Origin: Aureococcus anophagefferens
Taxonomy: Eukaryota; Sar; Pelagophyceae; Pelagomonadales; Pelagomonadaceae
Reading direction: 5' to 3'
DNA: 64,000 bases
NCBI RefSeq assembly: GCF_000186865.1
Contig: NW_008705571.1
Coordinates: forward strand, 1,250,465 to 1,314,464
Positions 5,501 through 25,424 of this stretch are shown here, piece after piece. Made by a program: the position numbers and the translations under genes. Numbering within the stretch: the first letter of the stretch is position 1; the number at the start of each line of letters is the position of its first letter. The notes under the pieces were generated by a model. The model worked only from the letters and a program-made list of their open reading frames with translations. It was not told where the DNA came from and did no database searches.

Positions 5501-8500
5501 GGTCGCCGGGGGCGCGCCGCCCGGTCGACGCCTTCGCCGCGACGTCCGACTCGGCGGCCGTGCTCTGCGGCCGCCTCTCCTTCGCGCTGGGCCTCCGGGG
5601 CGCCTGCGCGGCCCTCGACACCGCGTGCTCGGGCTTCCTCGTCGCGCTCCACGTCGCGCTGGGCCTCCTCGGCGGCGCCGGCCGCGCCGCCGCCTGCGGC
5701 GTCTCCGTCCTCGAGGCGTCGGCGGGCGCCGCGACGGCGGCGGCGGGCATGCTCTCGCGGACGGGCCGGTGCCGGACCTTCGACGGCGCCGCGGACGGCT
5801 TCGCGAGGGCCGAGGGCGCCGCGGCGCACGTCCTCGACGGCGGCGGCGACGTTCCCACCTTCGCGACGGCCGTGCGCCAGGACGGCCGCAGCGCGAGCCT
5901 CACGGCGCCCAACGGGGCCGCGCAGCGCGACCTCCTCGCGGCGGTCTCCGCGGAGGCTTCGACCGCGCTCGAGGCCCACGGCACGGGCACGGCCCTCGGC
6001 GACCCCGTCGAGGTCGGCGCGGCGACGCGCGCCCTCGGCGGCGCGCGCTTCTCCGCCGTCAAGGCCACGCTCGGCCACCTCGAGGCCGCCGCCGCCGCCG
6101 CGGGCGTCGCCGCGGCGACGCGCGCGCTCCGAGCCACGCTCGACCAGGGGAACCGCGCGCTCCGCGCGGCCAACGCGCACCTGTCGTCCTTCGAGGCGGC
6201 GGCCTTCGCCGTCGACGCCGCGCCGAACGGCGGCGACCGCGGCCGCCTGAGCTCCTTCGGCTTCAGCGGCACCATCGCGCACGCGGTCCTTCGCCGGCGA
6301 AGCGCGCCGACCGCGGCGGCGGCGCCCGGGTCGCTCGTCCGCCGGCGCGTCGGCGCGGTCCTGGCGCCGCCCGCGGCCCCGACGGCGCTCGTCGCGGCGC
6401 GGCGCGCCCACGCCGCCCACGTCGTCGCCGGGACCGCGCTCTGGCCGGCCGTCGCCTACGTGGAATTGGCGCTCCGCGGCGCCGCGGCGCTCGTCTCCGT
6501 CGCGTTCCTCCGGCCGCTCGCGGCGTCGAAGCGCCTCGAGTGGCGCGGCGACGGCGCGTCCTTCGCGCTGGCCGAGGGCGACGCCATCGTCGCCGCGGGA
6601 ATGTTTTCCGGGACCCGTCGTGCGCGAGGCCGGGCCCGCGCGCCGCGGCGGACCTTCGGCGCGCCCGTTTGGCCCGCCGCCGCGACGCGGCGGCCCTTCG
6701 TCGCCGCGCGACTCGCAGCTCCCACGCACCGCCGATCTCCGAAGCCGCCGTCGCTGGCCCGGCGGGTCGCCGCGGCGTCGAAATTTTTCGAGGCCGCGCG
6801 GCGCGTCCGACCAACCGGCGCGTCCCCGCGAGACCTCGCCGACGCCGCGGCCCGGGCCAGCGGTCGACGGCTCCCGTCGCGCAAGATCGACGCCCTCGCG
6901 CCGCTGCCGCGCGCGCGGCTCGCCGCGGCCGCGCGGCCGAAGCCCGTCGTTCGCGCCTCGAAGAAGAAACTGCCGATTTCAACCCCGAAGACTCGGCGAA
7001 ACGCCCAGCGCCCAGACGCCGCCGTCCGGGCGGCCGCGGTGGACGTGCTCGGGACGAGCGTCTCCTGGGACGCGCCCATCTTCCAGCAGGGCCTCGACAG
7101 CGTGTCCGCGGCGGAGTTCTCGCGCGTCCTCGGCGACCGATTGGGCTCCGCGGTCCCCGCGACGCTCCTCTTCGACCACCCGACGGTCCGCGACGCGTCC
7201 CGCGCCGTCGCGGGCGCCGCGGCGCCGGAAAACGAATGTTCACAAGCACCGGTCCGCCCGGTGTCTTCGCCGGCGTCGAGCCGGACCGAGGTCGCGCGCG
7301 CGCGCCACCGCTGCGAACGCGACCACGGCGAGCTCGCGGCGCGATGCCTCGCCGCGGCCGGGCGCGTGCCCTCGGCGCGCTGGGACGTCGCCGCCGGCGG
7401 CGACGCGGCGACCTACGGGTCCTTCGTCCGACTCCGCGCGGACGCGGGCGGCCTCGTCGGTCGCCTCGAGGCGGCGGCGATGAGCCCGGCGGCCGCGGTC
7501 GCGCTCGGTCGCGCGGTCGAGCTCCGGCCGGCGGCGCCCTCGGTCGCCGTGTTCCTCGGCGCCGGGGCGACGCTCGGAGCGACGACCGGCGGGGCGAACA
7601 TGCCTCTCTCCGTCTTCTCCGGCACGTCGGCGGCGCTCTCCGTGGCCTCGGGCCGCGTGTCCCACGCGCTCGGCCTCGTCGGCCCCGCGGTGTCGCTCGA
7701 CACGGCCTGCTCGTCGTCGCTCGTCGCGGTGCACCTCGCGGCGGGGTGCCTGCGGCGGCGGGAGGCCGCGTCGGCCCTGGCCATGGGCGTCAGCGTCCTC
7801 GACGAGGCGGTGACGCTCGCCTTCTCCGCCGCGGGGATGCTGTCGCCGCGCGGGCGGTGCCACGCGTTCGACGGCCGCGCCGACGGCTACTGCCGCGGCG
7901 AGGGCTGCGGCGCGTTCGTGCTCGCGTTGGACGTTTCGGAGGTGACGCTCGGCGCGTCGGCGGTGCAGCAGGACGGCGCCAGCGCGAGCCTCACGGCGCC
8001 GAACGGGACGTCGCAGCGGCGGCTGCTGCTCGCGGTGGCCGGTCATGGAAAGACGCTCGAGGCCCACGGGACGGGGACGGCGCTCGGCGATCCGATCGAG
8101 GTCGGCGCCGCCGCGGCGGCCCTGGACGCGCCGGCCTGCGCGTCGATCAAGGGCAACGTGGGCCACCTCGAGGCGTCGGCGGCCGCGTCGGCGCTCGCGG
8201 CGCTCCTCGCGGTGCCGCTGCGACTGTCCCGCGCCGTCGGGAACGCCCCGCTCCGGCGCTTGAACGCGCACCTCGAGGCGACGATCGCGTCCCGAGCGCT
8301 GCACCTCGCCGTCGGGCTCGCGCCGCGCGCGGCCGAAGCCGGCCGCGCGAGCTCGTTCGGCTTCAGCGGCACCATCGCGCACGCCCGGCTGGTCGCGCCG
8401 CGGCCGGAGCGGCGCACGGCGACGGAATCCGCCTTTCGCGGCGCGCGCGCGGTCGTCGCCGCCGCGAGCGCGCCCGCGGGGCGCCTCGGCTCGCGCCGAG

Positions 8501-11097: not shown

Positions 11098-12213
11098 AGA
11101 GCGGCTCCTCTAGTCGATGGCATTCAGCAAACGCCCGCGCATGGTACGATCGCATCGTGCGCGGCGGCCCTGCTGGGGACGGTCGTCCCTCCGAACGCGC
11201 CTCTCATGTCGGCCGGCATGGACTCGCTGACCGTCACTGCCTTCACGAACGCGATCGCGGCCCAGCTGAGCATCGAGGCGCCCGCGACTCTCGTGTTCGA
11301 CCATCCGACCCTGGACGCCATCGCGGCCCACTTGGAGGTCGCGGCGCCTCGAACGCAACGGCCGGCGACGGCCGTTGTCGAGCGAAAGTCTACCTCCGGG
11401 CCGAAGCCGTCGATCCTGCGCGGGCGAGTGCGACTGACGGGCACTGCGGGAACGCTGACGCGACTACGAGGGCTCATCTGCAGCTCGACGGTGGCTCCGT
11501 CGAGCATCCCCGCCGCGCGGTGGGAAGACGAAGCCGACTCGACGCCGCCGTCCGCCAGCTACGGGTCGTTCGTCGGGCAGGAGTGCTTCGACGCGGCCGC
11601 ATTCGGTGTTGGGCTGCCCGAGGGCCGCGTGCTACAGCTACAGCAGGTGCTCCTGCTCAACGTCGGCCTGGCCACCGTGTTTGCGGAGCGCGGACTCGCG
11701 AGGACGGACGTCAGCGTGTTTGTGGGCGTCGAGCCGAGCGACGCGGAGACCGCGACGCTCAGCGTGTTCTCGGCGACGGGTTCCGCGGTGTCGGTCGTCT
11801 CGGGTCGGGTGTCGTACGTCCTCGGCTTGGTCGGCCCGAGCATCTCGGTGGACACCGCGTGTTCTTCGGCCCTCGTCGCGGCTCATCAAGCAGCAGCAGC
11901 GTTGGATCGTGCGGAGTGCAGCAAAGCTATCACCGCAGCGACCAAGGCTCTCGGCCAACGCTCGAATCGAGCGACGGCTGTCGGTGGAATGACTTCGGCG
12001 CGAGGTCGCTGTCACTCTTTCGACGACCGCGCGGACGGATACTGCCGCGGCGAAGGATGCGTGGCTCTGCTCTTGAGCAGTGCGTCGACGGCGAGCAGGC
12101 CGCGGCTCCTCGCTACCGCAGTACAGCACGACGGCCCGAGCGCAAGCTTAACGGCTCCGAATGGCCAGTCGCAGGCTCGCCTCCTGAGGACCGTAGAAGG
12201 CGCGAAGCGCGAG
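11098..12213 (+). CDS. PKS segment: ACP and N-terminal part of KS, same frame after TAA
   Basis: After TAA 11095-11097 the same frame stays open. It encodes an ACP (about 11135-11340; Ser in SAGMDSL, then LVFDHPTL) and a KS (from about 11430) with DTACSSALV and the GRCHSFDDRADGYCRGEG block. Where most KS domains have LDPQQ this one has the sequence VLQLQQVLL. The frame is lost at about 12211-12214, where one extra G appears to be present. The KS continues in the next frame with SHGTGTALGDPVEIG. The longest ATG-started open frame here is 11206-12288. Confidence 0.65.
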
Positions 12214-14908
12214 GACGCTGGAGTCTCACGGCACGGGCACGGCTCTCGGCGATCCAGTAGAGATTGGCGCTGCTCTCGTCGTGCTTGATGCCGGCATTCT
12301 GTGCTCGTCCGTCAAGGCCAGCATGGGACATCTCGAGGCCTGCGCCGCGGCCGCCGGATTGGCGTCCGTGCTTTCGATCGGAGCGTCGCTCGTCGCCGCC
12401 AATGTCCAGCTTCTTCGCCTGAACGCGCACCTCCGGGCTCTTGGACTCGATGATCGACTTGTTCTGCCGGCGGGAATTGTGTCGTGCGATTCATTCGATC
12501 ACCGGCTCAGCTCGTTTGGTTTCAGCGGCACCATCGCGCACGGGGTTCTCGCGTCGCCGCGAGCCGCCGCGAGCAGCGTCTTTGCCGAGGAGTTCGCGTC
12601 GATCTCTCGATCAGAGACGCTACGCGCGGCGACAATGAGCACACCCCTGCGTCTACAGCTCGAGCCTTCAGCAACGAAAGTGGCAGAGCTCGCGCCGGCT
12701 GTACGCGTGATGACCTCGTCGCACGTCATCGGTGACAAGGCACTCTTTCCGGGAGTCGGCTTTGTCGAGATGGCCCTCGCCAACGCGCAGACGCGCTCGG
12801 CGTCTTTGGCGAGCATCGCGTTCACGCGTCCGTTTGTTCTGGGATCGTCGCGAGGTACGATGCGCTACGCGCGCACGAGCCGCGGGGAGTACACGATTTC
12901 CAGTGAGACGCACGTCCATGCGATGGGAACTGAAGCTGAGCTCCCCATCAAGTCCCTGTCGAGCCCGCGGAGTCTTGGAAAGAGCCCGACGGTGGTTCGG
13001 CTCGTCGCGGCAGCCTTGGTCGCCGTGTCCGACCATCGAATCCACGCGCCTGCTTCCACTTGCGCACCCAAACACGAGACGTCGCGGTGCTTGACCGCCC
13101 GAAGCACGTCGACGTCGGGGCGGCACTTGTGTCTCGCGTCTCGCGTCGGAAGACGCTCCGAGAATCTCAAGCCAGCGCCTCAATGCGTCAAGCTACGGTG
13201 GCTCCTGCTGGCGAAGCTGACCCAGCACGATCTCACTCGTGTTCTGGCGCGCGTGCGCGTTGAGCTTCCTTCGATACCTACGACACTCACGCTCTCGTTC
13301 CGAGGACGAGCGTCGACCGAGACAAAGGCGATTCGATCTCGGCAAACGAGGATGGCTCGAGGCCGAGTATCGGAGACCGAGACGATCCAGACGGCCGTAC
13401 TGGAGCTCCTGGCCACGGAGGTCACAAAAGAAGCGCCGCTCATGGCCGGCAGCCTGGACTCGTTGGGAGCGACGGAGCTGGTGCGGGTCGTGCGCACTCG
13501 GTGCAGCGTCGAGCTCTCGCCGACGACGCTCTTCGACCACCCGACGGTCGAGAGTCTCGCGAAGCACGTCGCCTCGCTGCTCGCAGTGGACGCCACCGAC
13601 GATGACCAACAGCCCGAGAAGGACGTCGCGACGGAGACAGACTCGGAGCTGGTGCTCGAGATCACCTCGACGGCTGCGCTCCTGCCCGTGCGCGATCGGA
13701 GCTGCGCCGCGGGCGACCTGTGGGGCCTTTCGCAGGATGGATGCGTGACGTGCGGATCTGTGCCGCTCGCGAGATGGGACGCGGATCGAGTCGAGACGAG
13801 GCGATTCAGCTCCGACGTGGTCGCGCGCGCTGGCTACGGGTCGTTCCTATCGGCCGAGCTCTCCTGGTTCGATGGCGCCTTCTTCCGGATGAAGCCGGCC
13901 GAGGCGGTTCCGCTCGAGCCGCAACAGCGAATGCTGCTCGAGGTCGGCTACGAGGCCGTTCATCGCGGAGGAAGCCGCCGGGCTTCGCTCGGTGAATCGA
14001 ACGTCGGCAGCTTCACGGGCATGATGAACATGGACGCCGCGTCCCAGCTCCCAGCTGAGCCGGGTCCATACGACCTGACGGGCGTGGGATATTCCGCGGC
14101 CGGAGCTCGGCTGTCGTACGCGTTTGCGATGCGAGGGCCGTGCGTTGTCGTGGACACCGCATGCTCTTCGAGCCTGATCGCCGTCCACCTGGCCCGGCGT
14201 AGCTTGCAGCATGGCGAGTGCTCGGGCGCGGTGGTCGCCGGGCCGAACGCCATCCTCGCGCCTGCCGCGCACGTGGGTCCCGCGCTGGCGGGCATGACCT
14301 CCGCGCGAGGCCGATGCCACACGATGGACTCGCGCGCCGATGGCTACGCTCGCGGCGAGGGCTGCGGCGCGATCAGTATGAAACCAGGCGGTCGCGACTC
14401 GACGATTCGATTCCGCGGGTCCTCGGCTCGGCACAACGGTCGAAGCGCGAGCTTCACGGCCCTGAATGGAGCTTCACAGCAGCTCCTGCTCCGACGCGCC
14501 TCGAGCGATGCCTCGTGCAAAGCAGAGAGTACCGGCGTCGTCGAGGCGCACGGGACGGGCACCGCTCTCGGCGATCCGATCGAGATGAGCGCGATAGCGG
14601 CGGTCGCGTCGAGCAAGAAGTCCGCTCTTTCTGTTGTCGCTGTGAAAGCGAACGTGGGCCACATGGAATCGACGGCGGGCGTCGCCGGGGTCCTCCGAAT
14701 CGTCGAGCTCATCACTCGAACGGCGTGGGTCGCAAACGCGCAGCTGCGCAGGCTCAACGGCCAAGTCGGCTCGGTCCGCAGGAAAGACGTCGTGTTCGTG
14801 GGCACCGACGCGGCGGGTACAGTGGGCGTGGAGCGTCTGGGGGGCGTGAGCTCCTTCGGCTGGAGCGGCATCATCGCGCACGGAGTTTGTTTCTCGTCGC
14901 TCGAGTGA
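12214..14908 (+). CDS. PKS segment: KS C-terminal part, DH, ACP, complete KS
   Basis: This continues the KS after the one-base frameshift (SHGTGTALGDP, KASMGHLE, SSFGFSGTIAHG). A DH hotdog follows (about 12640-12960) with HVIGDKALFPG; Asp replaces the Gly of HxxxGxxxxP. Then an ACP (13370-13590, SLDSL, LFDHPTV) and a full KS (13640-14890) with LEPQQRMLLEV, DTACSSSLIAVH, EAHGTGTALGDP, KANVGHME and SSFGWSGIIAHG. This last KS looks the most canonical of the window and precedes the HMGS cassette. The frame stops at TGA 14906. Confidence 0.7.
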
Positions 14909-15490
14909 ATTGTGGCGATGAACTTACATACGAGCCTTTTTTGACGTCAATTTGACTTGGGTAAGAAGCTCACGCGTGGACCAACGAGACTTGGCAAGAA
15001 GACTATCTGCGAACGAGACTCCACTTTCTTGACGCTGGCCTAGAGCAAGTCGGAAAGTATGCTTCCGCCTTTCGAGCGGCGCTCATTCGGCGCGCCGGTC
15101 GAGGGGCGCGTCGTCGTCGGCGACCTCGATGTCGCGTCTCTGCTCTTCGACCGCTCCGGTGCCTTGCTGGGCCGTCTGCGAATGTCGCTTCCGCTCGAGA
15201 CCGCCTTCACCGTTGCCCTGCGCACAACGGCGGCCCTCGAGACGGGCGTCCTGGACAGAAGCGCAGCCGACGTCCTGGCGATCGACGCGATCGAGTCGCG
15301 CCCCGCGAATGCGGTCTGGATCGACGTTTGACGGGTCCAGGACTCGTCGCACTTCCATGTTACCAACGTGACGCTACTCGATGCCCAAGGCGCCGTCGCG
15401 CTCCGCGCACTCGGCGTACACGCGCGACGCGCCGGCGCCTCGTCGCTCCCGCCGGTCGCCCGAGACGCCCGGAGACGGCGCCGCGCGGAC
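14909..15490 (+). other. PKS interdomain segment with four in-frame stops
   Basis: Frame 2 continues between the KS and the HMGS domain but carries TGA 14942, TAG 15041 and TGA 15329 besides TGA 14906. The open stretch 15059-15331 encodes 90 residues rich in Leu, Ala and Val with no family I recognise. Nothing in it matches an ACP or a DH motif. It may be a decayed docking or linker region. Confidence 0.4.
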
Positions 15491-16690
15491 GAGGCGGGCA
15501 TCGTCGCCCTGGACTACCACGCACCGAGTCTCTGCGTCCGTGCGACGGACGTGGAGCGCTTCCACGGCAGCCCCGGGCGCTACACTGTGGGCCGAGGCCA
15601 GGAGCTCGTCACTTTCGCGAGCGACGACGAGGACGCGGTTTCGATGGCGCTGTCGGCGCTTTGTCGGCTGCTCGCTCGAAGCGAGCTTGCTTTCGAGGAC
15701 GTCGGCCGACTCGAGTGTGGTACGGAGAGCAGCGTCGACCGTGGTAAGTCCACAAAGTCCTTCCTCATGTCTTTGTTCGAGGCGACCGGCGACCTCGACG
15801 TCCAGGGCGCGGACACCGTGAACGCCTGTTACGGCGGTACGAACGCGCTCTTGAGCACCAGGAACTGGATTCACGGCCCGGGATGGACTGGGAGGTACGG
15901 CGCCGTCGTCTGCTCTGACCCGGCCGTGCACCCGGACCCGGCTCAATTGGCCGGCGTCGGCGCGTCGGCGGTGTCCTTGCTCGCGGGACCGCGCGCTTCT
16001 CTGGCCATGGAGACGCGGTGCACGACCTTCGTCAAGCATGCCTGGGACTTTTACCGGCCCGTCGGATGGTCGTCCAACGACGCCCTCGTAGACGTCGCCG
16101 TGGCTACCACCTAGTATGAAGAGGCCATGCTCTGGTGCCAGGGCCGCTTCGATCGTCGCGACCTTCTCCTCGTCTACGATCGCGTCGCCTACCACTGCAA
16201 CGCTCCGTACCACGCCAAGCGGAACTTCCGAGTCATGTGCGAGGCCATGCACGCCCTGTCGAAAGGCGATCACGAGCGGCTCTACGACAGGCACGTCCTG
16301 CTCGGCACGGCGATCAGCGCTCAGAACGCGACGACGTACACGTGCCCTCTGTACGCGTGTCTTCTTTCGCTCGTTATCTGAGGAACTGACGGACGCGTCT
16401 TGTGCTTTTCCTACGGCTCGGGCTGCGCCGCGAGCATGTTCGCCTTTGAGTCCGACGGCCTCCCCGTCCATCCTTTGGACGCGCTCGAACGTCTGGCGCG
16501 TCGAAAGCCGAAGACGATTCCCGACGCGCTGGCTCTGATTACCGCTTTTGAAAGCACACATGGTCGCTTCGGCTTCGAGCCATCGTGGTCCTCGGATCGT
16601 CAGGATGGCGCGTTTTACCTCTGCGGAGTGACCGCGGTCGGCGTGCGGGAATACGCGCGGCACGAGTCTCGAGGCGCTTCGCTTCGCGTG
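15368..16690 (+). CDS. HMG-CoA synthase-like (HMGS, beta-branching) domain of the PKS
   Basis: HMGS family domain in frame 2. Diagnostic parts: DYHAPS near the start, GRLECGTESSVDRGKS holding the conserved acidic residue (about 15700), TVNACYGGTNAL holding the nucleophile Cys (about 15820), and YHCNAPYHAK for the His region (about 16195). The C-terminal core has CFSYGSGCAASMF. In bacterial trans-AT PKSs a free-standing HMGS adds acetate to a beta-keto-ACP intermediate; here it is fused in cis between KS and crotonases. TAG 16112 and TGA 16379 interrupt it, the first at a site where many HMGS proteins have Gln before Tyr. It could be a true HMG-CoA synthase relic, but its location argues for the PKS role. 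Confidence 0.75.
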
Positions 16691-16697
16691 CGCCGGG

Positions 16698-17281
16698 ACG
16701 ACGCCGCCACACGCATCGAGATGGTGCGGCCGCTACTTGATGAGAGTTTCTTGGCCGATTTCATGCGCGCGCTGGACGCGAACCGCCTTCACATATTTGT
16801 GCCTTGCGAGTCGTCGGACGCGGAGCCGGAATCGTCGCTCGAGCTCGATCTCATCCGGAAGGTGCTCGTCAATGATGTTCGGATCGCGACGATCTGCGCC
16901 GGCGCTACGCTGGGCAGAGCCATGCTGTTTCTGGCGCTTTCGGACGTTGTTATTGGGACGGCGGAGTCGCGATTCGGGTTTCCCGGGGCTGTTCCCGGAG
17001 CCGCGTCCGCCGCGCTCGGTCGGCGCGTTTCCTCGCAGCTCGTGAGGCGCTGGGTGCTGATGCGTGAGATCTTCGACGCCCGCACGGCCATGCTGAGCTC
17101 GCTCATTGACGGCATCGCTATGCAAAGGAGCGACGCCGAGCTCGAGCTGAGCTTACAGCTGGGACGCTCGAGTCCCCGAACAGAACTCTCGCCAGCGAGC
17201 CCTCCTCGCGCTCGCGACGAGCCGACTGCCTCGTGGGCGCGCGCTGGAGTCCTTCAGCTCGCATTATGGCCGCTTCCATAG
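16698..17281 (+). CDS. Crotonase (ECH1-like) domain following HMGS
   Basis: This is the C-terminal part of the open frame 16400-17281. After the HMGS end, the translation has a crotonase-like core: LHIFVPCESS, then RIATICAGATLGRAMLF, SDVVIGTAESRFGFPG and later SQLVRRWVLM. This matches the second oxyanion segment and trimerisation region of ECH1-type dehydratases. The first oxyanion segment (FxxGxD) is not clear. TAG 17279 ends the frame; the next open stretch is in the same frame. The inferred role is dehydration of the HMG-like intermediate after HMGS. Confidence 0.55.
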
Positions 17282-18060
17282 ACGCTCGTGGCGCGAAGCG
17301 ACCTGCACGTGGCCATCGTTTACAATTTTTCCCCTTCGCCGCGTCTAGACGTGCTACGCAACCTGGACGCTCCTCTCCTCGAGGTCTCGTCCCGCGCGGT
17401 CACGAAGCTCGCCGACTGGACCGCGTGCGTCCTCGGCGCCGAGGCTTTCGGTCTCGCGGCGTCGACGCACGATACGGCGGCGACGGCGCAGCAGCACACG
17501 CTCACGCTGGCCTTCACCATCGCGTCGGCTCCGCAGACCGGGACGCGGAACACGACGCGGCTGCTTCGGTTGGACTCGACCCCCGCAAAGGAATGCCTTC
17601 GCCGGCCCATGTTGATCGATCAATCGAGCATCATGTTCGAAAACATGCTGAATGTAGCAGCCCAACCCTGAAATATGACGATCACAACGCCCGAGCCTGG
17701 CGTCGTCAGCTTCCGCTGCGACGGTCTTTCCGAAACGGAGCTCCGCGGCGCTATCGCTCAAATGCGACCGACGTCCTGCGTCCACGTATTCTGCGTCGGG
17801 CCGCACGGCGTCGACCGGCAGTGCATCTAGCAGCTGTGACAGGTCGCTTCGCGCTGCGAGCGACCCACGTTTGCGATAGTCTCGGGATGCCAGCCCCGCG
17901 AATTGCTGTCCGCGGTCGACGTCGTGCTCGCCCACAGTCACCAAGCGACCCAGGACGCGATCATATCTCTTGTTGCTCGTCTCGGTGATCTGGACGATGT
18001 GAGCGCTTACCTGCGGGCTACGACGCCGGAGGAAGCATTCCTGAGAGCGGCGACGCGGAC
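17282..18060 (+). CDS. Degenerate crotonase/linker region with several in-frame stops
   Basis: Frame 2 remains the coding-like frame. From 17288 to about 17670 the translation has no recognised family. From about 17675 it has a crotonase-like pattern (PEPGVVSFRC, VHVFCVGPHGVDRQ, CERPTFAIVSGC, LSAVDVVLAHS) without catalytic signatures. Stops lie at 17669 (TGA), 17828 (TAG) and 17837 (TGA). The same kind of weak crotonase precedes the canonical one in the two FSH1-containing cassettes. Confidence 0.4.
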
Positions 18061-18870
18061 CGTCCGTCGCGCGGCGCCCGCGGGTCGGAGGCGAGTGCGC
18101 CTGGACTTTGCAGATAAAGGCCTGATCCGCACGGAACTCAACGATCCCACGACGTTCAATGCGCAGACGCCACCTTTTATGGAGAGCTTGCTGTCCTGCG
18201 CGCAAGAGCTACGTCGGCTCTGCGCGTTCGCTGACTCGCCGGCTCACGTTCTCGAGGGTGTCGGCGCCCACTTCTGCACCGGAGGGCGACACGACGAGCA
18301 TCGGCGAACACAATCATTCTCCGCGGCGCTGGCGGACCTGAGCGCGCAGAGCTCCATCACCGCGGAGATTCGAGCGTCGCTCTTCGCGACCTCGGCCGCC
18401 GTCCACGGGAAACTGATCGGAGGCGGCGTCGCCCTCGCTCTGGCCGCGGACTGGCGCGTGTGCCCCGAAGCGACGACGTTCACCTTCGGGAATCTCCCGC
18501 GGGGCGTCAATCCGATCTTGATGTTCAGCCGGGCGCTGCCGCTGATGGTCGGACGGAGCCCGGCGTTCCAGATCTACGTCGAAGACGCCGAGCTCTCGAG
18601 CTGGGAGCTCCGTTCGCTCGGACTCGTGAACGAGGTCGTCGCAGACACCGAGGAGGCGAGGCGATGTGCAAAACACGTCGCCGTGGACCGTCCCCTCGCA
18701 CGAAGCAGCTCCGCGCGGATCTGTTCGACCGACGCAGCCCACGCCGCGCGAGAGGTGATCTACTTCGCCGAGTCCTCCGCGGCTCGTCCTCGACACGTCG
18801 AGACGCATCATGTGACACGTGCACGAGAACCTCCAAGACCCCGCGTGCAGCTGGCGATGCCAGCCGGCCT
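18061..18870 (+). CDS. Crotonase (ECH2-like) domain of the HMGS cassette
   Basis: This is a canonical crotonase within the open frame 17903-19375: ELNDPTTFNAQTPPFM, GVGAHFCTGGRHD (first oxyanion segment) and HGKLIGGGVALALAADWRV (second). The FCTGG motif resembles PksI-type decarboxylases that finish beta-branch formation. An ACP follows. It is close in design to the domains at 3180-3870 and at the 22.9-23.7 kb split domain, so the three cassettes share ancestry. Confidence 0.7.
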
Positions 18871-19375
18871 CGAAGACGCCGCCGTGATCGCGCGGGTCTT
18901 CGAAGTCCTGGGGACCCTCGCCTCTCGCGATGCTCCACTCATGGCCGCTGGCGTCGACTCCTTGGGCGCCACCGAGCTCCAGAAGGCGCTGAGCGCGGAC
19001 CTGAGTGTCGAATTGCCGGCGACGCTTCTGTTCGATCACCCGTCGGTGTCCGCGATAGTCGAGTTCGTGGCCAGCGCCAGCGAAACAGTCGAGGCGGCGA
19101 TGAGCCTCGCCCGTGTACAAGCGCCGACGGAAACTTTGAGCGCTCTGGGAGTGTCGAAGATGACGATGAAAATTTCCGGGGACGTCGCGGCGGCGCCTCG
19201 ACTTCGCGAGCTCGCTTCGGGAGCGAGCACGACGCCCTCGAGCGTACCCGCGACGCGGTGGCACGTCGTCGAGCCTACATCAGCGACGTATGGATCGCTC
19301 ATCGTCGACGGGCTGCGGGTCGACAGTCGGAGCTTCGGCATCCAACCGTTTGCGGCCGAGCAGCTCGATCCATAG
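18871..19375 (+). CDS. PKS ACP and start of KS, ends at in-frame TAG
   Basis: ACP at about 18880-19080 with the Ser in AAGVDSLGATE and LLFDHPSV. The start of a KS follows (PATRW, TYGSL, FAAEQLDP). TAG 19373-19375 stands directly after LDP, exactly where the KS family has Gln in LDPQ. The KS continues in the same frame. The ACP sits directly after the HMGS-ECH-ECH domains, the position expected for a beta-branching carrier. Confidence 0.7.
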
Positions 19376-20300
19376 TTCCTCGTGTTGTTGGAGGCCGCCG
19401 CTACGTCGTTGCACGAGCGTGCGTCCGCCGACGTCGGAGTCTACGTTGCGCTGCTTGGACAGCCCGTCGAACGAGCGGCGGCAAGCGAGCTCGATCCCAA
19501 GGGAGCGCAGCAGATATCGGGCGCGTCGGGGCAATTGTCCTTTTCGCTCGGCCTCACGGGTCCTTGCGTGACACTGGACACAGCCTGTTCGTCCTGGCTC
19601 GTCGCAGCGCACCTGGCCCGTGCCGCTGTGTTCCGAAGCGAGTGCTCTCTGGCGACGGCCGCCGGCGCCGGCATCCTCGGAGCCGCGTGCAGTCGCTCGT
19701 TTTCCCTCCAGGGCATGCTCTCGGAACGCGGTCGTTGCCACACCTACGACAGCCGGGCGGATGGATACTGCCGAGGTGAGGGGTGCGTTGTGGTCGTACT
19801 ATGATCGACTGGCGAGGCTCGAATCGTCGGGCTGGCGGTGCAAAGCGACGGACCGAGCGCGAGCCTCGCGGCTCCGAACGGGTCCGCGCAACGCCGACTC
19901 CTCGCGGGCGTGCGCTCTGATTCCTATTCATGCGCAGCAGCTCTCGAAGCACACGGAACGGGAACCGCTCTCGGAGATCCGATCGAGGTCGGCGCCGCGG
20001 CGCTCGCGCTGGAAGACGAGGTCGCGTCCGCGTCGCTCAAGGCCAACGTCGGCCATCTCGAAGCGGTCGCGGGTGGAGCTGGAACGGTGTCGCTGCTACT
20101 GATTCCATTGTTGGCGGCCCGGGTCTCGCCGAATGCGCAGCTACGGCGGCTCAATCCGCATCTCGACTCTCTCATCAGGGAGGGTGGTTTCCGGATGCCC
20201 GTAAAGGACGCGCTCCTTCGAGCCACTCACGACACCGACGGTCGAGTGAGCTCTTTCGGCGCTACTGGGACCATCGCGCACGGGTTATTTGTGGCACGAC
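19376..20300 (+). CDS. PKS ketosynthase, interrupted by TGA
   Basis: KS continuation in frame 2: DTACSSWLVAAHL (nucleophile Cys), GRCHTYDSRADGYCRGEG, then TGA 19802, then EAHGTGTALGDPIEVG, KANVGHLE and SSFGATGTIAHG. The TGA lies right after the GEGCVVVVL strand, where the family commonly has Lys or Arg. All catalytic residues are kept. Open pieces are 19382-19804 and 19838-23002. Confidence 0.7.
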
Positions 20301-22960
20301 GGCAATCGTGGAGCTTGGCTCCTCGAAGACAGCCTGCGTCGATGTTTCGTCATGAAAGTGGTGCTCCGTCGAAGGCTGTTGCCTCTTGGATCGCAATTCC
20401 CTGTGAAGAGATTATCAACGAGACGCTCGCTTCTTCGATTCGCGAGCAGAGGCAATCGCTTGGCCCATTCTCAATTCTCGCGATCTTGGTTCGAGCGTGC
20501 CGCGGCGACGTGTGCAGACCGCTCTCCGCCGTGGACCGCAGACTCGTGGAGATTCAACAGCGTCTCGTGATGCTCGACGTTGCGCTCCTGCATCCTCTGC
20601 GGCGCATCCCATCAGCGCGCGCCCTAACAACGCGACGCGAGAGGACGGCGCCTCGCGTCTTGTTCCTCCACGGCATGGACACCTACGGCGAGTTCCAAGC
20701 TCGGCTCCTGGACTGCCAGGGGTGGTCGAAGGCCGCCGAGTGGGTCACGACGAGCGCTCCGCACCGAGGCGCTGACTTCTCCGGAGGAGCCGGCGGCGTC
20801 TCGCTGCGAGCTCGATTCGGATACGAGCCGGGACGGTCGCGGTCCTGGCGGCTCATCTCCGAGTACTCGGTGACGAGCAAGAGCCAGGCGGAGATGTTCG
20901 CCCGGATCCGCCGCGCGACGGACGCGAGCGCCGACGAGTACGGGCTGCTGGGCGACTGGGCCGCGTCAGTCGACCTCGTCGTTCGCGCCGCGACCGAGCA
21001 AGCTCCCCTGGACGGCATCGCCGGCATCAGCGAGGGCGGTACGGTGGGCGCGATCCTCTTCTCGCAGCATCTCCGCGGCGAGGTCTACCTCGGCAGCGGC
21101 TACCGGGGACGGCTGGTCTTGACGTTCTGCGCGCTGACGTCGCCCGCGCATTCTCGCATGTACGCGGACCCGATGCCGTGCCTCGCGAGCCTCCATCTGA
21201 CGGGAGACACGGACACCGCGGACGTATGGCACATGGGTGGACAGACGGCGGCGCTGTTTGGCCCGTGGTCGGGCTTGGGCCACTTTCGCGGCGGGCACAA
21301 GCTCCCGAGGCTGAGCGACGCGTTGAGTCGCACCGTGGACGAGCTGCGCGAGCAGAGCTTCGGGCTGAGCGTTCTTCGACGATGGGATCGCTCCGTGCCG
21401 TCTCGTTCGAGCGGCGGAACGAGCATCCCGACACGCCGGGCTCGACCGTTGGTCGAGGCCGCGGCGCCTGTCCGCGTCTCGATTCGGGCGACGGCGACGA
21501 CGTTGCGTGCTCATTGGCGAGGCAAGGGCGTGCTTCATGTGGAGGTCTCAGCACAGCTTGATGCCTTGGATGTTGTCCAGAAGCACGCTACGTGTCACGC
21601 AGTCGTCTTGGCAAGCAGTTTGCGTGTCGCCGAGAATCCGGGCGCGATACGAGAATTCTCCGAGCCAGTCGTGTCCGTGCTAGCCGGGCGTGCGGCTTCC
21701 GTGGGCGTCGCACGAGCGGCCGACTGGCTGGTCGCGACGCGGGCTCACATTGGTCGTTGGTCGCTCGCGGAACGCGGCCCGAGCTCCGTCGGCTTCGACT
21801 CGGCAGACGCGGCTCGGCTGCTTGGCGAGTGCACGACGATGCTGGCCTCCGTCGGCGTCATCGGCGCTCGCAACACGCTCGTGTCGATGCGCGCTAAATG
21901 TCAGGAGAGCTTTCATCCGAACGACGTGGTCGCGCGACTAAAAGAGACGGTGACCGTTTGCGCGATGCGCGGCGCTCGCTTCTGCGCGAGCGGCGTCGTC
22001 TTCGGGCGCAGCAGTGCCGTTCTGCTGACAGCACGTGCGGGTCCCGCTCTCACCTGGCGTCGCGGCGGCATCGTCTGCGTCGAAAGCTCGCGACCGCTCG
22101 TCCAGGGCCGCGCGACGTGGTCTCGCGCCGTCGCCGTCGTCGTCGAGCTCGGCGCGCGCGGAGCGATGCCGACGCGGCCGGTCGTGCTTCCGCTCCTCAC
22201 GATCCTCGTCGGGCGAGCCCACGACGTCGGCCTCTTCGACGCCGTCGCGGCCTCGCCGGCGCTCGCCGCGCGGCTCGCGGGCGCGGCCGCCCGGAGCTCC
22301 GCCGCTCGGAGCCCCGCCGCGTCGTCGTCGCGGACGCGGCGGGCCGCGGCCCTCGCGGAGACGCGGCCGTCGCCCGTGGCGCTGCCCGCCGTCGTCGCGA
22401 CGTCCGCCGCCGTGCACGTCGCCGCGCGGACGCTCCGCGGCGCGGTCGCCGCGCTCGCGGCCGTCGGCGGCGGCGGGCCCGTCGTGCTCGCGGCGTCGTC
22501 GCCGCGGCCGGAGCGCCCGAGCGCGCGCCCCGCGGCGCCGCGGCGGGACCGCGTCGTCGTCGCCGCCTTCGCCGGCGGCGACGCGGCCGTCGCCGCGCTC
22601 GCGGACGTCGCCGTCGCGACGGTCGGGTCGCGGTTCCTCGCCTCCGACGGCCGCGACCGCGCGCGCCGGGGCGCGAAGCGGGGCCGCGTGCTCCGCGCCG
22701 GCGGCGCCGTCGACGCCGTCGAGTGTGGCTTCGACGCGCTCTGCCGGCCCGGGGCGCTCGCGGCCGCGGCCGCGCGGCTCGCCGTCGGAGCGACGCCCGC
22801 GGCGCTCGCCGCCGCGGCCGCGCGGCCGCCGACGCCGATGGCGTCGTCCGCGGCGTCGACGCTCCTCCGCGGCCTCGCCGCGGCGGGCGCGAGCCTCGTG
22901 GGCGTCGCCTGGCGCGGCCGCGGCGCGACGGTCACGCTCCGCGACGCCGCGACGCTGAAC
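20301..22960 (+). CDS. PKS segment: FSH1 hydrolase, degenerate crotonases, start of split ECH2
   Basis: Stop-free continuation of frame 2. The FSH1-like serine hydrolase lies at about 20640-21385 (LFLHGMDTYG, GISEGG, TGDTDT, GGHKLP), followed by a weak crotonase (about 21440-22020). From 22100 the base composition jumps to very high GC. A second Ala-rich, weak crotonase stretch runs to about 22700, then the N-terminal strand of a canonical crotonase (VTLRDAATLN) ends at 22960, where an introner splits the codon order. FSH1 enzymes are alpha/beta serine hydrolases; in a PKS one could remove or proofread acyl chains (inference). Confidence 0.65.
20553..22024 (+). repeat. Long direct repeat, copy 2 (FSH1 hydrolase-crotonase block)
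   Basis: Partner of 1049-2520 with no indels at a constant offset. It has CAG at the position where copy 1 has TAG (1381). Copy 2 is uninterrupted, so the hydrolase fold can be judged here best. Confidence 0.9.
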
Positions 22961-23168
22961 GCGCTCACCTGTGCCGAATTCCACTGGTTTGGGTGGTCCT
23001 GACCAAACTTGAGAATTCTCTAACTCGGTCAAATCGAAGTCGATTCGGCTGATTTTTGGACGAATCGATTGCTCTCGTCGAGTTCTCGAAGCACAGCCAA
23101 AAAGGTTGCGTCGAAACTGTCGCATACGCGCACATTGAAGTCGGGTTGAAGATTTGAAATCGGCACAG
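22961..23168 (+). mobile_element. Introner element forming a GC-AG intron in the PKS
   Basis: The 200-bp element 22969-23168 has terminal inverted repeats (starts CTGTGCCGA, ends TCGGCACAG) and an exact 8-bp target duplication GCGCTCAC (22961-22968 and 23169-23176). Splicing from GC of the first duplication to the AG at the element end removes 208 nt, leaves one copy of the target, and restores the frame and the crotonase sequence TLNALTPRLL. The element carries the acceptor and the target supplies the donor. It shares its core (GCTGATTTTTGGACGA) with the other introners here. Confidence 0.93.
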
Positions 23169-25424
23169 GCGCTCACGCCGCGGCTGCTCCGGGACCTCGC
23201 CGCCGCGCTCGCGGCCGTCCGCGCGGCCGCGGCCGCCGTCGTCGTCGCGGGCGCGGGCCCCCACTTCTGCACGGGCGGCCGCTACGGCGCCGGAGAGGCG
23301 CGGCTCCGGCCGGTAGTGCGAGCGCGGCTCGTCGCGGCGACGGGTTCGGTCGTCGCGGGGCTCCGCGGCTTCCCGGCGCCGTCCGCGGCGGCCTTCGCGG
23401 GCGCGACGGTCGGCGGGGGCGTCGTCCTCGGCCTCGCCGCGGACCTGCGATGGTGCACGCGCGGCGCGACGTTCCGGCTGGGCCTCGCGCCCCTGGGGGC
23501 GAGCCCCGTGGCCTCGGCGACGGATCTCCTGCCGGCGACGCTCGGGTACCCGCTCGCGGCCGAGGCCTACCTCCGCGACAAAACCTTCGACGCGGCCGCC
23601 GCCGTCGCCGCGGGCCTGGCGCACGTCGTCGGCGACGTCGCCGTCGCCGCCGGGTTCGCGAGCGCGTCGCCCGCGGACCGGCGCCGGCTGCTCCGGGAGG
23701 CGTTCCTCAGCGTCGAGGCGTCCGCGCGGGACCGCGGCCCGTCGGCGCCGGCGCGCCGCAGGGCACGGCCGCCTCTGCGCGCCGCGCGTCCCGCCGCGAC
23801 GACGGCGTCGACGGACCGCGGAGCCGCGGCGGAAGTCGTCGGGGCGCTCGTCGCCGCCGCGCTCGGCACGACCGTCGACGGCCGCGCGCCGCTCCTCGAC
23901 GCGGGCCTCGACTCCCTCGCGTCGGCCGAGCTCGTGCAGCGACTGAACGCGGCGCTGGACCTGCAGCTGCCGGCGACGACGCTCTTCGACCATCCCTCGC
24001 TCGCCGCGCTCGTCGGCCGCGCCGCGGCCGCCGCCGCTCCGGCGGTCGCCGCGCCGCCGGACGACGGCGGCGCGCCGCCGTCGCGGCGCTGCGACCTCGT
24101 CGCGCGGCCCGTCGTCGTCGCCTTCGGGGACGCCGTCGCGCGCCTCTTCTCGCCGTCGGCCTTCGCGGCCTCCGGCGACGACCTCCGGAACGGCGCGCGG
24201 GGCGCCTCCAAAGCCCGGGGCGCGGCGGCGGAGTGGGCCGCGCCGCGGACGCTCGTCGTCTTCGCCCACGGCGCGCGCCTCGCGTGCCTCCGGCCCCTGC
24301 TCGTCCACGTCGTCCGCCGGCCCGAGCGCGGCGGGGAAGCCGCGTGGGCGGACGCGCACGGGCCCCTCGTCGAGGCGAACCAGGTCGTCCTGCGCTACGA
24401 GGCGGACCGCAAGTACGGCTTCCATACCTGGGCCGACGTCGTCGAGGCCGCGCGGCGGCCGCCGGACGGCGCGCCGCTCCCGTTCGAGGCTTTCGCGCCG
24501 CGCGGCCGCGGCGTCGCGTGGCGCCTCGGCTACGCGGTACGGAAACGCGACGAGGCCTGGTCCCTCATCTACGACAGCGCCTCCGAGGCCGGCGTCCTCG
24601 AGCTGCGCAAGGGCGACCGGCGCCTGCCCGCGCTCGTGACGTTTCACGGCGGCCTGGGCACGCCCGCGGGGGCCCTGCTGCCGTCGTACCTCCGCGCCGA
24701 GGTCACGGTCGTGGCCCTGCAGGCCCCGGAGCTCCGGGACCCGACGGTCCCGAGCCCCGGGTCCGCGGCGGGCCGCGCGCGGGCCTACTGCGCCGCCGCC
24801 GCCGACCACCTCGGGCCCGGGAGCCGCGGCGTGACGCTCCTGGGCCACTCGCACGGCGCCTACGTCGCGTTCCTCGCGGCGCCGGCGCTCGAGGCCGTCC
24901 ACTTCTTCTGCCTCGGGCTCCACATGGTCGACCCGGAGGCCCTGTCGCCCCAGACCCACGGCTGGACGCCGCTCCAGCGGCGGGGGCAGGTCTACGACAT
25001 GCTCTTCGAACACGTGGCGCCGTCGGACTACCTCGCCGCGGTGTCGCGCGGCGACCTGGCGACGGAGGCCGCGCTCGAGGCCGAGGTCCGCGCGGCCTTC
25101 CCGGACCGGTGCGACGAGTACGCGCGCCTCGCGTCCTTCGCGGAGCTGTCGCGCGCGGAGACGGCGGCGTTCCACGAGCGTCCGCCGCCCGCGGCCTTCG
25201 CGGGGCCGGCCGTCGTCTTCGTCGCGGACCGGGGGCCCGACTTCTTCGCCTTCCTCCACTACCCGAGCTTCGCCCACGAAGACGGCGTCTACGGCTGGTC
25301 CCGGCTCCTCCGCCAGATCCGCGGGCCCGTCCGCCTCGCGTGCGGCCACCTCGACCCGCTCCTCCGCGAGGCCACGCTCCGGACCATCGCCGAGTCCCTC
25401 ACGGGGCCCGGCGCCGAGCAGTAA
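23169..25424 (+). CDS. PKS C-terminal exon: ECH2 (rest), ACP, thioesterase
   Basis: The exon after the introner continues the crotonase (AGPHFCTGGRYG, then FAGATVGGGVVLGLAADLRW). An ACP follows (about 23820-24030; LDAGLDSLASAE, LFDHPSL). A stretch of about 180 residues without a recognised family comes next (24090-24640). It ends in a thioesterase-type alpha/beta hydrolase with VTLLGHSHGAYVAF (nucleophile Ser) and a His in ACGHLDPLL, typical of chain-releasing domains. TAA 25422 is a real stop; the next gene converges 27 bp away. There are no internal stops and GC is very high, unlike the central part of the locus. Confidence 0.8.
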   Translation, partial: ALTPRLLRDLAAALAAVRAAAAAVVVAGAGPHFCTGGRYGAGEARLRPVVRARLVAATGSVVAGLRGFPAPSAAAFAGATVGGGVVLGLAADLRWCTRGATFRLGLAPLGASPVASATDLLPATLGYPLAAEAYLRDKTFDAAAAVAAGLAHVVGDVAVAAGFASASPADRRRLLREAFLSVEASARDRGPSAPARRRARPPLRAARPAATTASTDRGAAAEVVGALVAAALGTTVDGRAPLLDAGLDSLASAELVQRLNAALDLQLPATTLFDHPSLAALVGRAAAAAAPAVAAPPDDGGAPPSRRCDLVARPVVVAFGDAVARLFSPSAFAASGDDLRNGARGASKARGAAAEWAAPRTLVVFAHGARLACLRPLLVHVVRRPERGGEAAWADAHGPLVEANQVVLRYEADRKYGFHTWADVVEAARRPPDGAPLPFEAFAPRGRGVAWRLGYAVRKRDEAWSLIYDSASEAGVLELRKGDRRLPALVTFHGGLGTPAGALLPSYLRAEVTVVALQAPELRDPTVPSPGSAAGRARAYCAAAADHLGPGSRGVTLLGHSHGAYVAFLAAPALEAVHFFCLGLHMVDPEALSPQTHGWTPLQRRGQVYDMLFEHVAPSDYLAAVSRGDLATEAALEAEVRAAFPDRCDEYARLASFAELSRAETAAFHERPPPAAFAGPAVVFVADRGPDFFAFLHYPSFAHEDGVYGWSRLLRQIRGPVRLACGHLDPLLREATLRTIAESLTGPGAEQ

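What the first reader, a model, noticed from the sequence alone, without database searches (positions are those of the whole stretch)
15368..19090. HMGS-crotonase-crotonase-ACP beta-branching cassette fused in cis inside a eukaryotic PKS
In the sequence, an HMG-CoA-synthase-like domain with its Cys (NACYGGT), acidic (GTESSVD) and His regions intact is followed in frame by crotonases and an ACP, and preceded by a canonical KS. In bacteria such as the bacillaene or pederin systems, HMGS, ECH1 and ECH2 are separate proteins acting in trans. A single polypeptide carrying all of them in an alga would be a new architecture and predicts a beta-alkylated polyketide.
Basis: partly seen in the sequence, partly recalled or inferred. 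Interest (0 to 1): 0.92.

Follow-up and report, generated by a model that had tools for sequence, protein, structure and literature searches.

The report
Algal polyketide synthase with built-in HMGS
A brown-tide alga carries, inside its giant polyketide-making genes, its own eukaryote-type version of a carbon-branching tool known from bacteria, and many of these genes contain in-frame stop signals that seem to evolve like ordinary arginine and glutamine codons.

Summary
Partly confirmed. Window 15.3-19.1 kb encodes, in one frame, an HMG-CoA-synthase domain, a weak crotonase-like stretch, a clear crotonase and an ACP, inside a multimodular PKS in which no AT was found. The alga is Aureococcus anophagefferens or a very close strain. 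But this copy has nine in-frame stops, as has a 97% copy 25 kb upstream. A stop-free paralogue on contig C12 (KS-HMGS-crotonase-ACP-reductase-KS, one intron inside HMGS) shows that the cis fusion is real. The HMGS groups neither with bacterial PKS HMGS (p-AU 1e-4) nor with pelagophyte mevalonate HMGS (p-AU 5e-111). It sits in a separate eukaryote-type clade also found in a cryptophyte and in environmental sequences, so the cassette looks like an independent eukaryotic answer to beta-branching. Stranger: the ~51% GC PKS arrays of this genome that I could read hold 668 in-frame stops in 29,343 codons, yet are under purifying selection. TGA exchanges with Arg codons, and TAG and less clearly TAA with Gln codons, near the synonymous rate, while kinases and a few other genes examined use the standard code. 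How these stops are read, if at all, is unknown; no suppressor tRNA was found, and there are no transcript or product data.

The parts
13391..13570 (+). ACP (PP-binding) of the module before the cassette
   Evidence: Pfam PF00550 E 1.9e-9, aa 399-458 of window:12197-14905
13661..14740 (+). ketosynthase upstream of the HMGS
   Evidence: Pfam PF00109 E 8.4e-48 (aa 489-729) and PF02801 (aa 740-848) in window:12197-14905
14906..15043 (+). probable intron (introner-like) between KS and the HMGS-containing exon; exact borders not determined
   Evidence: frame interrupted by stops and resumed in the same frame; sequence printed; inference
15044..15478 (+). dehydratase-like linker before HMGS (no Pfam match in the piece 15044-15328)
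   Evidence: no family; relatives P0124 and P0162 have PS-DH at this place; inference
15488..15997 (+). HMG-CoA synthase, N-terminal part, with the GTES and NACYGGT motifs
   Evidence: Pfam PF01154 E 1.2e-48; eukaryotic-type model TIGR01833 202.8 bits, cut-off 286.2 for the whole protein
15998..16663 (+). HMG-CoA synthase, remaining part, interrupted by in-frame stops at 16112 and 16379
   Evidence: PF08540 at C11:1266741-1267127 with one TGA inside and in window:16382-17278; stops
16664..17668 (+). crotonase-like but degenerate stretch
   Evidence: NCBIfam NF007239 E 1.3e-4 in window:16382-17278; low-confidence fold whose best PDB matches are enoyl-CoA hydratases, E 1.8e-3; no Pfam match in 17282-17668
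18116..18700 (+). crotonase (ECH_1) with FCTGG and HGxxxGGG motifs
   Evidence: Pfam PF00378 E 7.2e-17, aa 93-287 of window:17840-19372; motifs seen
18890..19069 (+). ACP of the cassette (GVDSL motif)
   Evidence: Pfam PF00550 E 5e-11, aa 351-410 of window:17840-19372
19400..20101 (+). ketosynthase after the cassette, with an in-frame stop at 19802 (and one just before it at 19373)
   Evidence: PF00109 E 1.9e-25 and PF02801 E 9e-15
20648..21322 (+). FSH1-type serine hydrolase domain
   Evidence: Pfam PF03959 E 5.2e-11, aa 282-506 of window:19805-22999
22960..23138 (+). probable introner-like intron
   Evidence: sequence; looks like the C12 intron; inference
23160..25421 (+). crotonase, ACP and a C-terminal part without a Pfam match; no in-frame stop
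   Evidence: Pfam PF00378 and PF00550 in window:23139-25421
15073..22151 (+). ~66% GC segment, 97% identical to C11:1240498-1247576, 0 indels, nine in-frame stops in each copy, seven shared

Best explanation
The window holds part of a large modular type I PKS of Aureococcus anophagefferens in which no AT domain was found. It carries a fused beta-branching unit: KS - (DH-like) - HMGS - crotonase-like - crotonase - ACP. Shown: the domains, their common frame, a stop-free paralogue on C12, the eukaryote-type clade of the HMGS, and purifying selection. Inferred: while a beta-ketoacyl chain sits on the module's ACP, the HMGS domain adds acetyl to the beta-carbon and the crotonase(s) dehydrate and decarboxylate, leaving a beta-methyl or exomethylene branch. 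In bacteria separate trans proteins do this. The HMGS was recruited from a second eukaryotic HMGS subfamily, independently of bacterial trans cassettes. The in-frame stops of this copy and of the low-GC arrays are most simply sense-like codons (UGA read as Arg, UAA/UAG as Gln): suggested by codon evolution, not shown by protein. One untested mechanism covers all three: ordinary Arg and Gln tRNAs pairing G36 with U at the first codon position.
For: Domains and frame. Stop-free paralogue: exon 1 KS_C-HMGS_N, exon 2 an 1861-aa stretch with HMGS_N/C, ECH_1, PP-binding, zinc reductase and KS, part of a 4,648-codon open frame. HMGS clade: 18 algal/PKS rows 100/99, inside 35 eukaryotic rows 100/100 apart from bacterial ones; repeated with 47 rows, clade of 22 rows 100/94; AU tests. 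Relatives: P0123 (HMGS plus following region, open), P0125 Rhodomonas salina, P0124/P0162 DH-HMGS, P0175 HMGS-ACP-KS, P0140 KS-HMGS. Selection: window copy against upstream copy 218 substitutions, 0 indels in 7,079 bases, pN/pS 0.35; low-GC pairs dN/dS 0.14-0.44 in 13 of 14 computable pairs. Stops as sense: conserved KS columns; exchange rates. No AT match in the window pieces scanned, nor on C11 or C12 among nine genome matches.
Against: No RNA, peptide or product data. Only one crotonase is clear, and the acceptor ACP lacks the Trp recalled as typical of bacterial beta-branching ACPs. In the window segment the stops are rarer than synonymous equilibrium would give (TGA:CGA 5:46 against TTG:CTG 33:77), so they may be damage there; the stop at 16379 does not face an Arg in the relative P0123. 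One KS in the window changes frame near 12.2-12.3 kb. The Gln reading of TAA is weak: before AA, C/T exchange is no higher at codon position 1 (0.109) than at position 2 (0.093). A ~80% GC stretch upstream also shows 3 TGA in 2,333 codons. No suppressor tRNA and no tRNA-Gln was seen, and eRF1 motifs look canonical.
Confidence: 0.62

Rival explanations
1. The window copy and the low-GC arrays are pseudogenes: the cis cassette is real and used only at C12 (and possibly other high-GC loci), and the rest are decaying copies that have picked up C-to-T nonsense changes.
For: Nine in-frame stops in the window copy, nine in its twin; a KS frame change near 12.2 kb; several low-GC KS change frame at one common place, which I read as a short intron without proof; GC falls from ~80% to ~66% and ~51% in copies with stops; 125 of 132 kinase matches are stop-free.
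Against: dN/dS 0.14-0.44 in 13 of 14 computable low-GC pairs, one short pair 1.33, and pN/pS 0.35 in the window pair with 0 indels in 7,079 bases; same-frame intervals run up to 2,225 codons with 59 stops (matches under 30 codons apart were merged); in conserved KS columns no stop at W (10 cells), Y (35), E (99), S (220) or K (11); H/Y, P/S and R/C changes are not relaxed while R- and Q-to-stop are.
Confidence: 0.25
2. The low-GC PKS arrays evolved in another organism that reads UGA as Arg and UAR as Gln, and reached this genome by horizontal transfer or as mis-scaffolded contamination. Here they are unreadable, and the 66% GC segments of C11 are fused remnants.
For: Sharp GC steps at the segment borders; scaffolds C34, C37 and others hold long N stretches, so joins may be wrong; among the genes examined the code behaviour is seen only in PKS genes.
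Against: The 66% segments lie inside continuous frames of C11, whose twin copies are still under selection. A stop-free 591-aa frame, without Pfam match, lies ~1.9 kb, without N, from a PKS AT match with stops (C34:218001-224700). A Pfam-recognised SURNod19 gene at 49% GC lies on the same scaffold, though N stretches lie between. KS clusters with failed gene models were reported in the earlier Aureococcus assembly (PMC4661987, passages read); I could not tell whether they are these arrays.
Confidence: 0.2
3. Transcripts are edited U-to-C, which turns UGA, UAA and UAG into Arg and Gln codons before translation.
For: Exactly the three stop-to-Arg/Gln changes that such editing would give.
Against: General editing would also relax His/Tyr, Pro/Ser and Arg/Cys positions; these change far less often (60 of 1,285 sites against 46 of 271 for stops). 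Not known for nuclear mRNA of such algae (recalled).
Confidence: 0.06

Closest known systems
Bacterial trans HMGS (HCS) beta-branching cassettes (bacillaene PksG-type, curacin CurD-type, recalled; here Streptomyces xanthii L117 and Sandaracinus L114)
   Same: HMGS with Cys, Glu and His motifs next to crotonase and ACP in a PKS setting; inferred same chemistry
   Different: Bacterial members are separate proteins (ACP-KS-HMGS-ECH-ECH in L117; for L114); the algal form is fused, with eukaryote-type HMGS and only one clear crotonase; common clade rejected
Eukaryotic mevalonate HMG-CoA synthase (HMGCS)
   Same: Best NCBIfam and PDB matches are eukaryotic HMGCS; same side of the tree
   Different: Embedded in PKS, separate clade; grouping with pelagophyte HMGCS rejected; pieces score below the equivalog cut-off
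Algal multimodular type I PKS without AT (PMC4661987, abstract and passages read)
   Same: Giant modular PKS without AT; Aureococcus KS clusters on two scaffolds noted there
   Different: 'HMG' and 'ECH' do not occur in that main text, nor do 'stop codon' or 'pseudogene'; the authors found re-annotation of the Aureococcus clusters difficult
Nuclear codes with all three stops reassigned (Condylostoma, recalled; Amoebophrya, PMC6394959, and Blastocrithidia, PMC10874023, both seen only in the search listing with start of abstract)
   Same: UAA, UAG and UGA all behave as sense; UAR as Gln is known (recalled)
   Different: UGA behaves as Arg rather than Trp (recalled for the others), seen only in PKS genes here, and in an organism with canonical eRF1 motifs and stop-free kinases

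Membership tests
Bacterial trans HMGS beta-branching cassette | HMGS with catalytic Glu, Cys, His | tested here: met
   GTES, NACYGGT and NAPYH motifs in the window, C12 and relatives; residue roles recalled
Bacterial trans HMGS beta-branching cassette | HMGS domain in the bacterial PKS-HMGS clade | tested here: not met
   AU test p 1.3e-4 against; trees; only three bacterial PKS-type rows, long branches
Bacterial trans HMGS beta-branching cassette | HMGS and ECH as separate proteins | tested here: not met
   fused in one open frame on C12
Bacterial trans HMGS beta-branching cassette | two crotonases, ECH1 and ECH2 | tested here: inconclusive
   one ECH_1 over the cut-off; the other stretch weak
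Bacterial trans HMGS beta-branching cassette | acceptor ACP with conserved Trp after the Ser (recalled) | tested here: not met
   window ACP reads GVDSLGATELQ, no Trp near
Bacterial trans HMGS beta-branching cassette | decarboxylating KS and donor ACP | not tested
   not searched for specifically
Bacterial trans HMGS beta-branching cassette | HMG-ACP formation and beta-methyl product | not testable with these tools
   needs biochemistry
Eukaryotic mevalonate HMGCS | in the clade of the organism's own HMGCS | tested here: not met
   AU test p 5e-111 with five pelagophyte-type HMGCS rows
Eukaryotic mevalonate HMGCS | NCBIfam equivalog cut-off TIGR01833 (286.2 bits) | tested here: inconclusive
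   202.8 bits for the N-terminal piece alone; pieces only
Reassigned stop codons | stops stand at conserved sense columns and exchange with one amino acid's codons near the synonymous rate | tested here: met
   for the ~51% GC PKS arrays; clear for TGA/Arg and TAG/Gln, weaker for TAA/Gln
Reassigned stop codons | organism-wide use | tested here: not met
   125 of 132 kinase matches stop-free, the other 7 with TAG/TAA only, the best 125 of 358 candidates scored; five other low-GC frames, ~39 expected, none internal
Reassigned stop codons | cognate suppressor tRNAs | tested here: inconclusive
   30 of 37 tRNA matches got an anticodon, none CTA, TTA or TCA; of 11 CTA/TCA pattern matches fetched, ARAGORN called one, a tRNA-Ser(cga); four of five TTA matches not fetched, the fifth is tRNA-Lys; the tRNA list is a lower bound
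Reassigned stop codons | altered eRF1 | tested here: not met
   TASNIKS and YLCDNKF present in two frames of L124; motif roles recalled

The most novel reading that the evidence does not exclude
Aureococcus has a gene-family-restricted genetic code: its PKS arrays are translated with UGA as arginine and UAA/UAG as glutamine, while the rest of the genome uses these codons as stops. Production of a polyketide is thereby tied to a switchable decoding state. Within it sits an independently evolved, fully cis beta-branching cassette built on a eukaryotic HMGS.
Probability: 0.35. Interest if true: 0.97.

Novelty: new variant of a known kind. Interest (0 to 1): 0.85.

Why it matters
A 2019 review (PMC6835853, passages read) says that every dinoflagellate polyether studied has a beta-alkylation site, that there was still no molecular or genetic evidence for the enzyme, and that HMGS genes should be sought. 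This report gives a concrete eukaryotic PKS-HMGS family, with a stop-free gene to express and a sequence profile to search with. It also suggests that the branching machinery arose separately in eukaryotes. The stop-codon pattern would, if the stops are read, be a code change confined to one gene family; even if they are not read, it could account for the poor gene models of Aureococcus PKS clusters reported in 2015 (PMC4661987, passages read).

Tried and rejected
Rejected: in-frame stops as introns inside the HMGS (relatives are nearly collinear there with no room for an intron). Rejected: a general C-to-T decay or trinucleotide-context artefact for TGA and TAG (codon position 2 in the same trinucleotides stays low; W columns untouched); for TAA the context control does not separate (0.109 against 0.093). 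Considered and not supported: repeat-induced mutation as the cause of the GC drop, because the duplicates are 97% alike, so the drop should predate the duplication (inference).

Led nowhere: search of bacterial/archaeal genomes with the C12 HMGS piece (34 pattern matches, none confirmed); rRNA search (machine error, not repeated); fold of the crotonase-like piece is of low confidence. Literature: eight searches of the held library brought up no paper describing HMGS inside an algal PKS or recoded PKS in Aureococcus; I looked into passages of five papers (PMC10366177, PMC4661987, PMC10756674, PMC12194139, PMC6835853). The library lacks most subscription papers, so this is weak evidence of absence.

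Limits: codon statistics rest on the low-GC stretches that I could fetch (parts of C34, C37, C52, C77; 44 intervals, all of which hold stops); PKS stretches of C41, C45 and C55 were not read. The intervals were found by similarity to PKS proteins with stops read as X, so badly broken pieces are under-represented. In the all-pairs table stops also face other residues: TGA 140 Arg, 17 Gln, 16 Gly, 11 Ala; TAG 122 Gln, 38 Glu, 26 Leu, 20 Ser, 18 Arg; TAA 52 Gln, 17 Lys, 10 Ser, 10 Arg (pairs not independent). In the looser table most stops face columns without a majority residue. Tree rows were hand-picked from listings, not all hits; of six low-GC loci tried four gave a row, one of them partly N; the second tree dropped six rows of the first and added eleven. 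The AU groups were set after the first tree was seen. The five low-GC control frames were chosen for being long and open, and the one stop counted in L084 is its own terminal stop.

Full report
What the window is. The window is C11:1250465-1314464 of a 49.05-Mb, 86-contig genome. A 268-aa piece of the genome's ordinary HMG-CoA synthase on C1 is 100% identical over 84% of its length to an entry named Aureococcus anophagefferens (P0003), and 99% to an unnamed environmental one (P0001). So this is that pelagophyte alga or a very close strain.

Checking the observation. Between 15.0 and 22.2 kb one + frame carries, in order, a linker, HMGS_N, HMGS_C, a crotonase-like stretch, ECH_1, an ACP, a KS and a serine hydrolase domain. 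A KS with ACP lies just before, at 13.4-14.7 kb. The frame has nine in-frame stops (15329, 16112, 16379, 17279, 17669, 17828, 17837, 19373, 19802). The whole 7,079-base block is repeated at C11:1240498-1247576 at 97% identity, with nine stops, of which seven are shared. No AT domain was found in the window pieces scanned, and none of nine AT matches in the genome lies on C11 or C12. This agrees with the AT-less multimodular algal PKS described in PMC4661987 (abstract and passages read).

Is the fusion real? Yes, on C12. There the first exon holds KS_C and HMGS_N. After one intron, an 1861-aa stretch without stops holds HMGS_N/C, ECH_1, PP-binding, a zinc-type reductase and KS; it is part of an open frame of 4,648 codons. 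The N-terminal KS part lies further upstream in another frame, so a second intron is likely. The HMGS intron is flanked by the 8-base repeat GGCGCGGA, like the introner elements known in this alga (recalled). Related proteins show the same kind of embedding: DH-HMGS (P0124, P0162), HMGS-ACP-KS (P0175), KS-HMGS (P0140), HMGS with a reductase (P0166, P0176), and a Rhodomonas salina protein with HMGS followed by a crotonase-like start (P0125; seen by eye, Pfam finds only HMGS). P0123, from an unnamed organism, is the nearest relative of the window domain outside this genome (76% identity) and is open through it.

Where the HMGS comes from. The best solved relatives of the C12 piece are mitochondrial and cytoplasmic HMGCS. 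In trees of 42 and 47 rows the embedded HMGS form one supported clade on the eukaryotic side (18 rows 100/99; 22 rows 100/94, which also takes in a Blastocystis protein not known to be embedded and one very long row, P0168). They lie away from bacterial PKS HMGS with their cassettes (L114, L117, L119) and away from pelagophyte HMGCS. Holding them with the bacterial PKS HMGS is rejected (p-AU 1.3e-4), and so is holding them with pelagophyte HMGCS (p-AU 5e-111). Long branches between bacteria and eukaryotes make the first test weaker than the second, and the order of branches among eukaryotic groups is not resolved.

How it most likely works. By analogy with bacterial HMGS cassettes (recalled), the HMGS would condense acetyl on an ACP with the beta-keto group of the chain, and crotonases would dehydrate and decarboxylate. 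Here HMGS and crotonase are tied to the same chain as the ACP, so the branch would be made in cis. Shown are the domains, the motifs and the fusion; the reaction and the product are inferred. Only one crotonase is clear. The stretch before it looks like a degenerate crotonase (NCBIfam E 1.3e-4). The low-confidence model (pLDDT 52.7) has enoyl-CoA hydratases as its best matches, with LnmF among the first twenty (E 0.047); LnmF belongs to leinamycin beta-alkylation (recalled).

The stops: where they are. Composition splits PKS genes of this genome into ~80% GC, ~66% GC (window block and twin) and ~51% GC arrays on C34, C37, C52 and C77. The ~80% window parts have no in-frame stop in 3,104 codons; a ~80% stretch upstream, its frame chosen for fewest stops, has 3 TGA in 2,333. 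Other ~66% window parts have 0 in 868 and 2 in 1,632 codons. In the fetched ~51% arrays, 44 coding intervals (29,343 codons) hold 668 in-frame stops, up to 59 in one same-frame interval of 2,225 codons. In 18 of their KS domains the active-site Cys motif and the EAHGTGT-type motif can be read in all (one as EAHSTGS); some end before the third motif. Several change frame at one common place, which I read as a short intron.

The stops: what they face. At KS columns at least 60% conserved, TGA stands at Arg in 15 of 18 cases, TAG at Gln in 6 of 11 (Arg 3, Cys 1, Leu 1), TAA at Gln in 4 of 5; most stops face less conserved columns. Codon counts are TGA 295 against CGA 305, TAG 239 against CAG 417, TAA 134 against CAA 495. 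In 15 non-overlapping paralogue pairs (8,554 aligned columns, gaps included), first-position C/T differences between stop and Arg/Gln codons occur at 46 of 271 sites. The figure is 61 of 274 for synonymous leucine codons (p 0.13) and 60 of 1,285 for non-synonymous first-position changes (p 7e-11). By codon, CGA/TGA changes at 18 of 82 sites and CAR/TAR at 28 of 189; for TAA alone the sequence-context control does not separate. Of these pairs 13 of 14 computable give dN/dS 0.14-0.44; one short pair gives 1.33. So these stops have evolved as sense codons, clearly for TGA and TAG, less clearly for TAA.

Against an organism-wide code: 125 of 132 kinase matches are stop-free and the other seven hold TAG or TAA only (the best 125 of 358 candidates were scored). 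Five other frames on the same low-GC scaffolds, chosen for being long, hold no internal stop where ~39 would be expected. eRF1 keeps TASNIKS and YLCDNKF. No suppressor tRNA emerged from 37 listed tRNAs (30 with an anticodon called) and three patterns.

For the window copy the case is weaker. Stops are rarer there than synonymous equilibrium would give (TGA:CGA 5:46, TTG:CTG 33:77), but the twin copies differ by 218 substitutions with no indel and pN/pS 0.35. A simple idea, untested, is that ordinary tRNA-Arg(UCG) and tRNA-Gln read the stops by a G36-U1 pair, which predicts exactly UGA=Arg and UAR=Gln. A tRNA-Arg with TCG can be read by eye in L055 (sequence in the fetched locus, not called by ARAGORN); no tRNA-Gln was among the 30 called. 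High efficiency would be needed. Horizontal transfer from a recoded donor, decay and editing are weighed under the rivals.

What is known. The 2015 survey noted more than 50 KS genes in Aureococcus, many in co-directional clusters in which only the KS parts were thought to be annotated, and found re-annotation not straightforward (PMC4661987, passages). 'HMG', 'ECH', 'stop codon' and 'pseudogene' do not occur in its main text. The genome paper of the pelagophyte Chrysophaeum taylorii has no occurrence of 'HMG' or 'stop codon' either (PMC10366177, term search and passages). A 2023 study reports induction of polyketide-related transcripts by a grazer (PMC10756674, passages). A 2019 review says that genetic evidence for the beta-alkylating enzyme of dinoflagellates was lacking (PMC6835853, passages).

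Verdict. Its predicted bacterial kinship is not borne out, its crotonase count is uncertain, and its copy is interrupted. The intact paralogue and the separate eukaryotic clade make the cis cassette a new variant of a known kind. The stop-codon behaviour is the most surprising lead and stays unexplained.

Noticed in passing
window 11098-12285 and 12197-14905: One KS domain changes reading frame near 12.2-12.3 kb (indel or assembly error).
   Followed up: no
window 1039-3964, 15073-22151 and C11:1240498-1248892: Mosaic segmental duplications of ~66% GC PKS segments (95-97% identical) with sharp borders to ~80% GC PKS sequence in continuous frame.
   Followed up: partly
window 7543-8209 and 9622-10288: Near-identical KS segments (99.1%, six differences) in two successive modules, suggesting recent gene conversion or duplication.
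   Followed up: no
window 29084-30938: Array of imperfect tandem repeats, period about 147 bases by the offsets of the self-comparison.
   Followed up: no
scaffolds C34, C37, C41, C45, C52, C55, C77: Large low-GC PKS arrays; their 13 HMGS matches and most of their KS matches (by hand count about 70 of 80) carry in-frame TGA/TAG/TAA; under purifying selection where tested.
   Followed up: yes
C34:223278-224063 and C52:90356-91141: Two AT domains with in-frame stops inside the low-GC arrays (3 and 10 stops), so these arrays, unlike the window gene, may have AT in cis.
   Followed up: no
P0159-P0161, P0163: Sabethine mosquitoes (tribe recalled) encode ~940-aa proteins; the one scanned (P0159) holds two HMG-CoA synthase units in tandem.
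   Followed up: no
P0166, P0176: HMGS fused to a thioester-reductase-like domain, one with a TubC docking domain: another cis-HMGS architecture, organism unnamed.
   Followed up: no
P0121, P0122: Environmental HMGS proteins (120 and 20 member sequences) both end at or near the place where Aureococcus low-GC copies carry paired in-frame stops, hinting that the same stops exist in other populations.
   Followed up: no
L102 (C77:13001-14500): A 28% GC frame of 203 aa without Pfam match lies about 2.8 kb from a low-GC KS, without N between.
   Followed up: no
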